Source: Nitrosopumilaceae archaeon (lineage in GTDB: Archaea; Thermoproteota; Nitrososphaeria; Nitrososphaerales; Nitrosopumilaceae). From it: 64,000 bases of DNA. The translations under genes were made by a program, and so were the position numbers. The DNA lies in assembly GCA_035631875.1 (NCBI GenBank), contig DASQHX010000011.1, positions 248,001 through 312,000 of the forward strand, in the 5' to 3' direction. The notes under the pieces are model-generated. The model was not told the DNA's origin. It saw only the letters and a program-made list of their open reading frames with translations, and did not search any database. Below are positions 3,164 to 6,168 of this stretch, in pieces; position 1 is the stretch's first letter; each line of letters opens with the position of its first letter.

Positions 3164-3922
3164 ATGAGTTGGCTTACTGATGCCCACATTCATCTTTCCG
3201 ATGATGAATTTTCAAAAGATATGCCATTTATTGTTAATTGTATGGATAGATTGAGAATACGAGCTTGCTGTGTATCCATGGATCTTCAAAGTTCAAAAAA
3301 AACACTTGAAGTTAGTAAGAAAAGCAATCTGATATTGCCATTTATCGGTATCCATCCTGAGAAGGCATCTTCAAATGATTTAGAGCAGGTTGTCAATCTA
3401 ATAGAAGAAAATTCAAAATATATTTCTGGAATAGGTGAAATAGGACTTGACAAAACATATGTTTCCGATGAAATTGGATTCAAAAATCAAGAATTGGTTT
3501 TCCATAAAATGCTATCATTAGCTGAAAAACTGAAAAAACCAATCTCCATTCACTCTAGGGCAACATTGGAAGAAATATTGTCCATATTACCATCTTATTC
3601 GATTTCTGGCATCTTATTGCATTGGTTTGCAGGTAGTAAAAAACAACTAAAAACAGTAATGGAACGTGAGTATTTTGTTTCATATGGACCTGCTATGCTG
3701 TATGCAAAAGATAAACAAGTTTTACTTTCAGAAACTAGCGCAGAAAGAATTCTTGTAGAAACAGACGGCCCTGTGAAATTTTCACGATGCTTTGGATTTA
3801 AAGTAGGACAGATATCTTTTCTTCCAAGTGTTGTATTTTGTGCTGCAAAAGTCTTACACACAACATATGATGATATTTCCAACCAATTAGAGCAAAATTG
3901 TAAGCACTATCTTGGTGTATAG
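3164..3922 (+). CDS. TatD-family metal-dependent hydrolase
   Basis: This 252-residue amidohydrolase-fold enzyme of the TatD family (metal-dependent DNases/phosphoesterases) retains the expected metal ligands: H8 and H10 in DAHIHL, E92 in GEIGLD, H130 in SIHSR, H153 in LLHWF and D201 in VETDGP. Length is typical. The natural substrate in archaea is uncertain (DNA 3' ends or another phosphodiester). A small gene of unknown function overlaps its 3' end by 11 bp, suggesting cotranscription. Confidence 0.88.
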   Translation: MSWLTDAHIHLSDDEFSKDMPFIVNCMDRLRIRACCVSMDLQSSKKTLEVSKKSNLILPFIGIHPEKASSNDLEQVVNLIEENSKYISGIGEIGLDKTYVSDEIGFKNQELVFHKMLSLAEKLKKPISIHSRATLEEILSILPSYSISGILLHWFAGSKKQLKTVMEREYFVSYGPAMLYAKDKQVLLSETSAERILVETDGPVKFSRCFGFKVGQISFLPSVVFCAAKVLHTTYDDISNQLEQNCKHYLGV

Positions 3923-4211
3923 GTATAAAAAACCCCTGCTGCCAATCGAAGACGTGAACAGAATCAAACGAATTTCAACAGAGGTACTAGCTATCTATAA
4001 AGAGAAATTTGGAACTGATTTTGCACAAAATAAAAAAATCCTCGATCAAGTTGCTATTGTTAGATCTAAAGGCCTCAAAAATGAGATTGCAGGATACATT
4101 ACGACATACATTAAGCGTGAGATTGAAGAACAAAATGAGAAAGAAGCTCAAAGAATAGAAGCAACAGAATCTGTTGAGCCAGAAGGACTAGAAGAAGAAA
4201 TATTAAATTAA
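3912..4211 (+). CDS. Conserved-looking small acidic-tailed protein
   Basis: The 99-residue protein is predominantly helical, with a basic N-terminal half (IKRISTEVLAIYKEKFG) and a Glu-rich C-terminal tail. I do not recognise a domain. The start is TTG 3912 or GTG 3915, both overlapping the end of the TatD-type gene. The middle (about residues 28-70, basic and regularly spaced) could form a ribosome- or nucleic-acid-contacting helical domain, but that is only a composition-based guess. Confidence 0.65.
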   Translation: MVYRYKKPLLPIEDVNRIKRISTEVLAIYKEKFGTDFAQNKKILDQVAIVRSKGLKNEIAGYITTYIKREIEEQNEKEAQRIEATESVEPEGLEEEILN

Positions 4212-4282: not shown

Positions 4283-5062
4283 ATGATAGCGATAAAACTT
4301 CTAGGAGGAGCAAAAAAATCCTTTTCTACAGATAAATTAGAAATTGATAATGACTCGATATCAGTATCTGAATTAATAGAACTCCTTCAGGAAAGGATTC
4401 CAAAAAACTTGGAACAATTAGATATAAAAAATATATTAATTGCAATCAATGGTATAGATTCTTCTACCTTGGAAGGCTTGGCAACTATTCTCAAAGACGG
4501 AGATGTAATTAGTATAATTCCTGTAATTCATGGCGGAAATGTGAAAAGAATATGGTTCAACATATTCAAAACTAGAATAGAATTGATAGGAATAAAAAAT
4601 GATTTTGATGATCCAATAAAATTTCTTGAAGATTTACGTCAAAAGCACACAGATTTGATAATTCAAGGTATTTGTTCTACTTATGTTCTGAACTTGGAAC
4701 ATGCAAAAAAAGTAATTACAATTTCTCTTGTAGCTCAAAAAACTGATAGTATGCTTTCAAACAAACTTGAAACAGATATTTTAATGCGATTTGCCTGTAC
4801 GAGACAAATTAATGAGGCAATTCAAAAAGTTGGCATGAAAAGACGAGAAAATTTTATTTTGATAGCAATTGGAAAAAAATTATCTCTTGATAAACTATAT
4901 TTCTCATTGGAACATCTCTTAACATCTACTGTTTTTTCAAAAAATAACTCTAATTTTCTAAAAAAAGAATTCAGAATATCTGCAAAACAACTACAATCAG
5001 TTGTGTCTCATACCCCACTTGAGGATTTGCTTGCAGAAAAATCAGCTGTACTATTCAGATAA
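4283..5062 (+). CDS. ThiS/MoaD-like domain fused to KEOPS subunit Cgi121
   Basis: Residues 1-85 look like a MoaD/ThiS (ubiquitin-fold) domain. They have the beta-strand start MIAIKLLGG, an ILIAING strand, the L-KDGDVISIIPV element, and finish with an internal HGG (83-85), where free MoaD/ThiS proteins end. Residues about 88-259 match Cgi121/TPRKB of the KEOPS complex, with the diagnostic run LVAQKTDSML..KLE.DILMRFACTRQINEAI. KEOPS makes the t6A modification of ANN-decoding tRNAs from threonylcarbamoyl-AMP, which is supplied by the Sua5 protein encoded 0.5 kb away. Whether the diglycine is used for cleavage, thiocarboxylation or conjugation, or is just a linker, cannot be told. Confidence 0.82.
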   Translation: MIAIKLLGGAKKSFSTDKLEIDNDSISVSELIELLQERIPKNLEQLDIKNILIAINGIDSSTLEGLATILKDGDVISIIPVIHGGNVKRIWFNIFKTRIELIGIKNDFDDPIKFLEDLRQKHTDLIIQGICSTYVLNLEHAKKVITISLVAQKTDSMLSNKLETDILMRFACTRQINEAIQKVGMKRRENFILIAIGKKLSLDKLYFSLEHLLTSTVFSKNNSNFLKKEFRISAKQLQSVVSHTPLEDLLAEKSAVLFR

Positions 5063-5572
5063 ACTGCGTTTTAATTTTTGAGTACTCAAAACATCATTTT
5101 CTTTTAATATTGAAATACCTGTCTTGTTTCCAATAATCTCTACTAGTATTATCCAATCAAATTTTTCAAGTGATACTTTGTTATCAATTTTATCTGCAAT
5201 TGCATCAATTATTTCCTTTGTTGAAATAGCAGAATGTCTCTTCTCAACTGTTATTCTATAGGTATCCTCAACTCTCATTATTTTTGCATGATTGAGGACA
5301 GAATTCACTATGTTTTGTTTTTCAGTAATTACTGTTTCCTGAATAGGTATAATCCTATGACAATATCTCATACTCCATGGTTCTTCCAGAATCTTTTCTT
5401 GAATTTTTTTAATTACTAAAAATGGTTCAAGTGTAGTAATACAAACCACAATACCAGAAAGATTTGTTATGCTTATCTTACTGTTATTGTCTCCAAAACT
5501 TTCTAGAATCGTGGTTATTTCTTGAGCAGCTTCATCCTCAAGATGGCGACTGGATGTTACAATTAGATTCAA
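5051..5572 (-). CDS. THUMP-domain RNA-binding protein (Tan1-like)
   Basis: This 173-residue protein matches the stand-alone THUMP family (Tan1/COG1818). It has an N-terminal NLIVTSSRHLEDEAAQEI segment, the EEPWSMRYCHRIIPI element in the middle and the characteristic TYRITVEKRHSAISTKEIIDAIA THUMP core, ending in ISIL. In eukaryotes Tan1 helps install N4-acetylcytidine on tRNA; the archaeal role is likely tRNA binding. The stop overlaps the convergent Cgi121-fusion gene and the start overlaps the upstream Sua5 gene by 4 bp, so it is probably cotranscribed with sua5. Confidence 0.85.
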   Translation of the reverse strand: MNLIVTSSRHLEDEAAQEITTILESFGDNNSKISITNLSGIVVCITTLEPFLVIKKIQEKILEEPWSMRYCHRIIPIQETVITEKQNIVNSVLNHAKIMRVEDTYRITVEKRHSAISTKEIIDAIADKIDNKVSLEKFDWIILVEIIGNKTGISILKENDVLSTQKLKRSLSE

Positions 5573-6168
5573 AGTAATGCTGTTAGCTCCGTTTTGGTTA
5601 TTTTTCCAGGTCTTAATATTTTCAAATTACCTTCAACTATTTCTACAATTGTGGATTCACTAGAATTTAATATTCTTCCGCCATCTAAGAAAACATCGAA
5701 TCCTGAAAAATTCTCTAGTACTTCCTTTGAATTAGAAAATGATGGATTTCCAGAATGATTTGCACTAGTCCCAACCATGATTCTACATTCCTTCAAAAGT
5801 GATAGTATACAAGTATGATTAGGAACTCGTACAGCAATTTTGTCATCTAACTTCATAGACTCACTAATTTCTTTATCTTTTAATTTTAAAACTAGGGTTA
5901 CCGGTCCTGGCCAGAACCTGTCTGCAATTTTATTAGATAATTTATCAAATATGGCAATTTTTGATATCTCTTCTTTTGAATATCCAAGGACAGGCAAATT
6001 TTTGGATTGTGACCTTTTCTTTATACTGTAGATCGCATCAACAGCTTTTGGATTTCGTGGATCGCATCCTATACCATAAACTGTATCTGTAGGAAACACA
6101 ACTAAACCGCCTTTCTTTACTGTAATGGCAGCTAATTTGATCCCATCTGGATCGCAAGCGACAATCAC
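5569..6168 (-). CDS. sua5: L-threonylcarbamoyladenylate synthase (Sua5/YrdC)
   Basis: This 199-residue Sua5/YrdC/TsaC-family enzyme makes threonylcarbamoyl-AMP from threonine, bicarbonate and ATP for t6A biosynthesis. Visible are the N-terminal FPTDTVYGIGCD motif (25-36), the KKRSQSKNLPV substrate loop (about 50-60), WPGPVTLVLKL (86-96) and the TSANHSG signature (134-140). It ends shortly after the YrdC core, so the extra C-terminal Sua5 domain is absent (TsaC-like length). It forms an operon with the THUMP gene and lies near the Cgi121 fusion, giving a small t6A neighbourhood. Confidence 0.9.
   Translation of the reverse strand: MIVACDPDGIKLAAITVKKGGLVVFPTDTVYGIGCDPRNPKAVDAIYSIKKRSQSKNLPVLGYSKEEISKIAIFDKLSNKIADRFWPGPVTLVLKLKDKEISESMKLDDKIAVRVPNHTCILSLLKECRIMVGTSANHSGNPSFSNSKEVLENFSGFDVFLDGGRILNSSESTIVEIVEGNLKILRPGKITKTELTALL

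What the first reader, a model, noticed from the sequence alone, without database searches (positions are those of the whole stretch)
4283..5062. Ubiquitin-like (MoaD/ThiS) domain fused to KEOPS subunit Cgi121 with internal Gly-Gly
The N-terminal domain ends in the PV-x-GG form used for thiocarboxylate or conjugation chemistry, but continues straight into Cgi121. Either the fold is an adaptor, or the protein is processed after HGG to give a free ubiquitin-like modifier and Cgi121. This would connect tRNA t6A formation with sulfur or ubiquitin-like chemistry.
Basis: partly seen in the sequence, partly recalled or inferred. Interest (0 to 1): 0.6.

Follow-up and report, generated by a model that had tools for sequence, protein, structure and literature searches.

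The report
Ubiquitin-like tag fused to Cgi121
In ammonia-oxidising archaea a small ubiquitin-like protein is made as one chain with Cgi121, a subunit of a tRNA-modifying complex; the fusion was described in 2010, but its unvarying Gly-Gly junction and three re-split genes suggest it is a precursor cut into two working proteins.

Summary
The ORF at 4283-5062 (+) is real: a beta-grasp Ubl (residues 1-85) ending IPVIHGG runs into a Cgi121 domain. The fusion is not new: Makarova & Koonin 2010 (PMC2948915) reported it in all Thaumarchaea then available, next to ribosomal S17e.

What I add concerns the Gly-Gly. HGG is kept in 101 of 102 distinct fused proteins, with synonymous codon changes. It lies before a variable linker and is the only segment below pLDDT 50 in an AlphaFold2 model averaging 91. 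Outside Nitrosopumilaceae the Ubl is usually a separate gene ending at or just after HGG, directly upstream of cgi121. Within Nitrosopumilaceae three genomes have re-split the gene just after HGG (HGGA*, HGGNK*, HGGGKNKRKL*). The window's genome has no free ThiS-family Ubl and has two canonical JAMM proteins.

I favour a precursor cleaved after HGG into a Urm1-like modifier or sulfur carrier and Cgi121 (about 0.6), as shown for MoaX (GG|S) and SAMP1-MoaE. Cleavage, the protease and any role of the Ubl in t6A are not shown. A permanent adaptor remains possible.

The parts
4283..4537 (+). Ubl (Urm1/ThiS/MoaD-type beta-grasp) domain, residues 1-85
   Evidence: Pfam ThiS 5e-11 and Urm1; AF2 model; Foldseek to 2g1e, 2l52 SAMP1, 2k9x Urm1, 1jwb MoaD
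4529..4537 (+). His-Gly-Gly (residues 83-85), inferred cleavage site after Gly85
   Evidence: 101/102 distinct fused proteins keep HGG; only segment with pLDDT below 50
4538..4567 (+). variable linker / start of Cgi121 (residues 86-95); three relatives are split here
   Evidence: mean pairwise identity 0.29 against 0.53 and 0.47 in the flanking domains; splits
4547..5062 (+). Cgi121 (KEOPS subunit) domain, residues 89-259, plus stop codon
   Evidence: NF011465 1.3e-34; Foldseek to 4ww7, 8up5, 7kjt; CCA-binding residues of mjCgi121 map to Q128, Q175, I176, I180, G184
3912..4211 (+). ribosomal protein S17e, upstream gene on the same strand (start codon uncertain)
   Evidence: Pfam Ribosomal_S17e 2.9e-18; upstream in 60/60 fused loci with full flanks
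5051..5572 (-). THUMP-domain protein, convergent neighbour; its 3' end overlaps that of the fusion gene by 12 bases
   Evidence: Pfam THUMP 5e-8; synteny 59/60
5569..6168 (-). Sua5/TsaC, makes the threonylcarbamoyl-adenylate used by KEOPS
   Evidence: TIGR00057 1.7e-49; synteny 57/60

Best explanation
The gene encodes a linear precursor: a Urm1-like ubiquitin-fold protein (residues 1-85) joined through a flexible HGG to Cgi121. The chain is most likely cut after Gly85, probably by a JAMM/MPN+ metalloprotease of the cell. That would release (a) a Ubl with a free HGG carboxylate, able to be activated by the cell's E1-like enzyme as a sulfur carrier (for example for TtuA/Ncs6-type tRNA thiolation) or protein modifier, and (b) Cgi121, which joins KEOPS and holds the tRNA CCA end for t6A synthesis. 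Shown here: the architecture, HGG conservation, the hinge, the separate orthologous genes, the re-split genes, and the presence of E1, JAMM, TtuA-family, Kae1 and Pcc1 genes. Inferred: cleavage, the protease, E1 activation and the fate of the Ubl.
For: HGG is among the ten least variable positions of 259, while the ten residues after it average 0.29 pairwise identity. Glycine and histidine codons vary synonymously, so the constraint is on the protein. HGG is the only stretch with pLDDT below 50 in a mean-91 model, so the fold does not require it. Outside the family the orthologue is a separate gene upstream of cgi121, most often ending exactly HGG-stop and otherwise a few residues later, usually in the same S17e-Ubl-Cgi121 order. 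Three Nitrosopumilaceae genomes are re-split right after HGG, each with a usable Cgi121 start: TGA-TTG (G106), ATGA overlap (G554), ATG inside the HGG codons (G382). Three of four frame disruptions falling in a 10-residue linker has P about 2e-4 under uniform placement. Fusions that look separate in origin (G391, G401, and a Ubl-phosphoribosyltransferase in L046) keep HGG. G000 has only two ThiS-family Ubls, both N-terminal fusions with internal GG. The residue after GG is S/A/G/T in 87 of 102; M. tuberculosis MoaX is cut at GG|S and needs it for activity (PMC4326299); HvJAMM1 cuts SAMP1-MoaE after GG in vivo (PMC4443979); CsJAMM cuts SAMP precursors (PMC6043591). G000 has two JAMM proteins with canonical motifs.
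Against: No direct evidence of cleavage. The fused state is retained in the great majority of Nitrosopumilaceae, so being made as one chain may matter. JAMM genes are near-universal in the sample, so their presence is weak support, and they are not next to this gene. Some Nitrosopumilaceae assemblies with HGG have no detected Ubl-E1 (G015, G006, G027, G033), although congeners have it and assembly gaps cannot be excluded. The three splits come from draft assemblies, and two are in one genus; frameshift error is possible, above all for G382.
Confidence: 0.6

Rival explanations
1. Permanent adaptor: the Ubl stays attached and gives KEOPS a docking domain (for E1, TtuA/Ncs6, proteasome or ribosome partners), coupling t6A to other processes. 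HGG is kept because it contacts a partner.
For: The fusion is retained across most of the family. Cgi121 keeps its CCA-binding residues, so it should still work in KEOPS.
Against: HGG is disordered in the model. The orthologue is a separate protein in other families. Three members of the family have re-separated the halves. A docking domain does not obviously need an HGG ending.
Confidence: 0.25
2. Relict or simple hinge: the fusion is neutral, the Ubl no longer does chemistry, and HGG survives as a flexible linker.
For: One fusion (L039/G050) has lost GG (HCS), so the motif is not needed for the architecture.
Against: The His is kept as strictly as the glycines, while neighbouring linker residues drift. 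The loss is in a genome where no E1 and no JAMM were found (82% complete), as expected if HGG matters only when that machinery is present.
Confidence: 0.1
3. Nucleic-acid constraint: CATGGNGGN is kept because it holds an ATG used to start Cgi121.
For: In several split loci the cgi121 start can be the ATG inside the HGG codons (L040, L041, L042, L050 and others).
Against: In fused genes that ATG is out of frame with Cgi121; the His codon is CAC in 12 of 102; many split loci start elsewhere.
Confidence: 0.03

Closest known systems
Thaumarchaeal Ubl-Cgi121 fusion of Makarova & Koonin 2010 (PMC2948915)
   Same: Same fusion, same lineage, same S17e neighbour; a t6A/Ubl link is already proposed there
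   Different: The passages read do not discuss HGG conservation, processing, the split orthologues with HGG ends, or the re-split genes
MoaX (MoaD-MoaE fusion) of M. tuberculosis (PMC4326299)
   Same: Ubl with internal Gly-Gly followed by Ser, N-terminal to its partner; cleavage at GG|S is required for activity
   Different: Partner is MoaE in molybdopterin synthesis, the natural partner of MoaD; Cgi121 is no known sulfur acceptor
SAMP1-MoaE linear fusion cut by HvJAMM1 in Haloferax volcanii (PMC4443979)
   Same: Archaeal Ubl, internal GG, JAMM protease
   Different: That fusion was engineered from separate genes; here it is natural and the protease is not identified
Urm1 (eukaryotic; Sulfolobus Saci_0669, PMC12645042)
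   Same: Beta-grasp fold, HGG tail as in eukaryotic Urm1, S17e neighbour in Sulfolobales
   Different: Urm1 is a free protein; Pfam and NCBIfam rank ThiS/MoaD-type models above Urm1 for this domain
Ubl-E1 (MoaD-MoeB) fusion of Thaumarchaeota (PMC2948915, PMC11237513)
   Same: Second Ubl of the same genomes, also N-terminal with internal GG (PAVAGG|S)
   Different: Partner is the activating enzyme; tail is AGG, not HGG

Membership tests
Cgi121 (KEOPS subunit) | sequence family match | tested here: met
   NF011465 1.3e-34, 119.5 bits against a cutoff of 40
Cgi121 (KEOPS subunit) | Cgi121 fold | tested here: met
   Foldseek 4ww7, 8up5, 7kjt, E down to 2e-8
Cgi121 (KEOPS subunit) | tRNA CCA-binding residues | tested here: met
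   mjCgi121 Gln28, Gln71, Ile72, Ile76, Gly80 map to Q128, Q175, I176, I180, G184; the positions of Met60 and Lys56 carry other residues in the window protein
Cgi121 (KEOPS subunit) | binds Bud32 and stimulates t6A synthesis | not testable with these tools
   Kae1 and Pcc1 genes found in the genome; Bud32 not searched
Urm1/ThiS/MoaD ubiquitin-like proteins | beta-grasp fold | tested here: met
   AF2 model and Foldseek
Urm1/ThiS/MoaD ubiquitin-like proteins | C-terminal Gly-Gly | tested here: inconclusive
   Gly-Gly is present but internal; terminal only if the chain is cleaved, or in the split orthologues
Urm1/ThiS/MoaD ubiquitin-like proteins | adenylated and thiocarboxylated by an E1-like enzyme | not testable with these tools
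   An E1 (fused to its own Ubl) is present in G000
Urm1 proper | HGG tail | tested here: met
   HGG in Cgi121-linked Ubls; the other ThiS-family Ubls recovered end AGG, GGG or SGG
Urm1 proper | Urm1 model is the best match | tested here: not met
   ThiS 5e-11 against Urm1 1e-5; NCBIfam Urm1_like below its cutoff
GG-processed Ubl fusion precursors (MoaX, pre-SAMP) | Ubl N-terminal to partner with internal GG | tested here: met
GG-processed Ubl fusion precursors (MoaX, pre-SAMP) | cleavage after GG | not testable with these tools
   needs protein experiments

The most novel reading that the evidence does not exclude
Nitrosopumilaceae make their Urm1-like modifier only as a Cgi121 precursor, so JAMM cleavage at HGG sets equal supply of a sulfur carrier/modifier and of a KEOPS subunit, tying t6A37 to Ubl-dependent tRNA thiolation or protein tagging, comparable to eukaryotic ubiquitin-ribosomal protein fusions.
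Probability: 0.3. Interest if true: 0.7.

Novelty: already known. Interest (0 to 1): 0.45.

Why it matters
The fusion has been known since 2010, and the library searched held no experimental follow-up. The conservation and re-splitting evidence turns a vague 't6A meets ubiquitin-like chemistry' idea into a simple test: is the chain cut after HGG in a cultured ammonia oxidiser? If so, these abundant archaea would make a Urm1-like modifier and a KEOPS subunit from one precursor.

Tried and rejected
E1 loss as a natural experiment: several Nitrosopumilaceae assemblies with HGG lack a detected Ubl-E1, but searching two of their genera showed a congener with it in each, so absence may be assembly gaps; dropped as inconclusive. 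JAMM co-occurrence: nearly universal in the sample, so little discriminating power. Start codon inside the HGG codons as the reason for conservation: rejected for fused genes because it is out of frame. Promoter/terminator scan: no more than in shuffles. Disruptions not at the junction: G530 (frameshift inside the Ubl, 70% complete genome) and G441 (middle missing, apparently chimeric) are listed but not used as splits; G523, G535 and G438 run off contig ends. Literature searches for proteome evidence of cleavage found nothing relevant.

Full report
OBSERVATION. The window encodes a 259-residue protein at 4283-5062 (+). Residues 1-85 match ThiS and Urm1, and the rest matches Cgi121. The junction is ...IIPVIHGG|NVKRIWF.... 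Upstream on the same strand lies ribosomal protein S17e; downstream and convergent lie a THUMP protein and Sua5/TsaC, the enzyme that makes the activated intermediate for KEOPS (the role of Sua5 is established knowledge).

ALREADY PUBLISHED. Makarova & Koonin (2010, PMC2948915) reported that a Ubl-Cgi121 fusion is conserved in all Thaumarchaea then available, that it is apparently cotranscribed with S17, and that it might link KEOPS with Ubl chemistry. The same paper reported Ubl-E1 fusions in Thaumarchaeota, and a 2024 survey counts MoaD-MoeB fusions in 61 of 98 thaumarchaeal assemblies (PMC11237513). The architecture is therefore known. What follows concerns the Gly-Gly.

CONSERVATION. A search of the family found a match in 205 of 219 genomes, and the roughly 150 best matches listed were all uninterrupted full-length fusions. 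In 102 distinct fused proteins HGG is intact in 101, with GGT/GGA/GGC/GGG and CAT/CAC all in use, so selection acts on the protein. Mean pairwise identity is 0.53 in the Ubl, 0.99 in HGG, 0.29 in the ten residues after it and 0.47 in Cgi121. The residue after GG is Ser in 57, and Ser, Ala, Gly or Thr in 87 of 102. The exception, L039 (genome G050, 82% complete), has HCS; no E1 and no JAMM were found in that genome.

FOLD. AlphaFold2 on an alignment of 52 sequences gives mean pLDDT 91 and pTM 0.67. The only segment of three or more residues below 50 is 83-85, exactly HGG. Foldseek matches the C-terminal part to Cgi121 in KEOPS structures, and the N-terminal part to Ta0895, SAMP1, Urm1 and MoaD. 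HGG is thus predicted to be a flexible hinge between two ordered domains, yet it is among the most conserved stretches of the protein. The Cgi121 part keeps most of the residues that hold the tRNA CCA end in mjCgi121 (Gln28, Gln71, Ile72, Ile76, Gly80; PMC7718258).

ORIGIN. In other families of the order, and in other classes of the phylum, the Ubl is a separate gene directly upstream of cgi121, generally in the same S17e-Ubl-Cgi121 order. These separate Ubls most often end exactly at HGG; some carry one to nine further residues. In several loci the cgi121 start codon can be the ATG hidden in the HGG codons (cATGGNGG). Fusions that look separate in origin occur in G391 (HGG kept), G401 (HGG kept) and G050 (HCS), and in L046 the same Ubl, with HGG, is fused to a phosphoribosyltransferase. 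No tree was built, so the number of fusion events is an inference from taxonomy and architecture.

RE-SPLITTING. In Nitrosopumilaceae three genomes have lost the fusion just after HGG: G106 (HGGA-stop, then TTG), G554 (HGGNK-stop with an ATGA overlap) and G382 (HGGGKNKRKL-stop, with the Cgi121 ATG inside the HGG codons). One other disruption (G530) lies inside the Ubl; G441 looks chimeric. Three of four breaks in a 10-residue linker has probability about 2e-4 if breaks were uniform, or 5e-4 if G441 is counted as a fifth. The two halves can therefore exist apart, which does not fit an obligatory fused adaptor.

MACHINERY. The window's genome has two ThiS-family Ubls, this one and an N-terminal Ubl on an E1 (PAVAGG|SEL), and no free one. 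It also has two JAMM proteins with canonical motifs, a TtuA/Ncs6-family protein, Kae1 and Pcc1. In G040 and G044 a JAMM gene sits directly upstream of the Ubl and E1. If any Ubl is to carry sulfur or be conjugated here, a fused one must first be cut.

PRECEDENT. MoaX, a natural MoaD-MoaE fusion, is cut between Gly82 and Ser83 and needs it for activity (PMC4326299). HvJAMM1 cuts a SAMP1-MoaE fusion after GG in vivo, and not when GG is deleted (PMC4443979). A Caldiarchaeum JAMM cuts SAMP precursors (PMC6043591).

CONCLUSION. The best reading is a processed precursor (0.6). A permanent adaptor (0.25) and a relict hinge (0.1) remain. Cleavage, protease, E1 activation and any functional link of the Ubl to t6A are inferred. 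Absence of E1 in some assemblies could not be used, because congeners have it.

Noticed in passing
L206:4629-5942 (G000 C11, outside the window): The genome's second Ubl is fused to the N-terminus of an E1-like enzyme, with internal PAVAGG|S conserved across the family; in some relatives (e.g. G049) the two are separate adjacent genes. The same precursor logic may apply.
   Followed up: partly
L046:2802-3632: Orthologous HGG Ubl fused to a phosphoribosyltransferase (PF00156), with cgi121 as the next, overlapping gene.
   Followed up: partly
L040, L041, L042, L044, L045, L050, L198 (junctions): The cgi121 start codon can be the ATG embedded in the CAT-GGN-GGN codons of the upstream Ubl, a gene overlap that could ease fusion and fission by small indels.
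   Followed up: partly
L207:11351-12745 (G000 C9): A second E1-like protein, 465 aa, ThiF domain preceded by an apparent JAB-like N-terminal region.
   Followed up: no
G040 C90:5944-7377; G044 C54:6937-8628: JAMM, Ubl and E1 genes lie in a row on one strand, suggesting a shared pathway.
   Followed up: no
L201, L202 (family f8 of the same order): HGG Ubl next to S17e, but no Cgi121 recognised downstream with my model; it may be divergent or moved.
   Followed up: no
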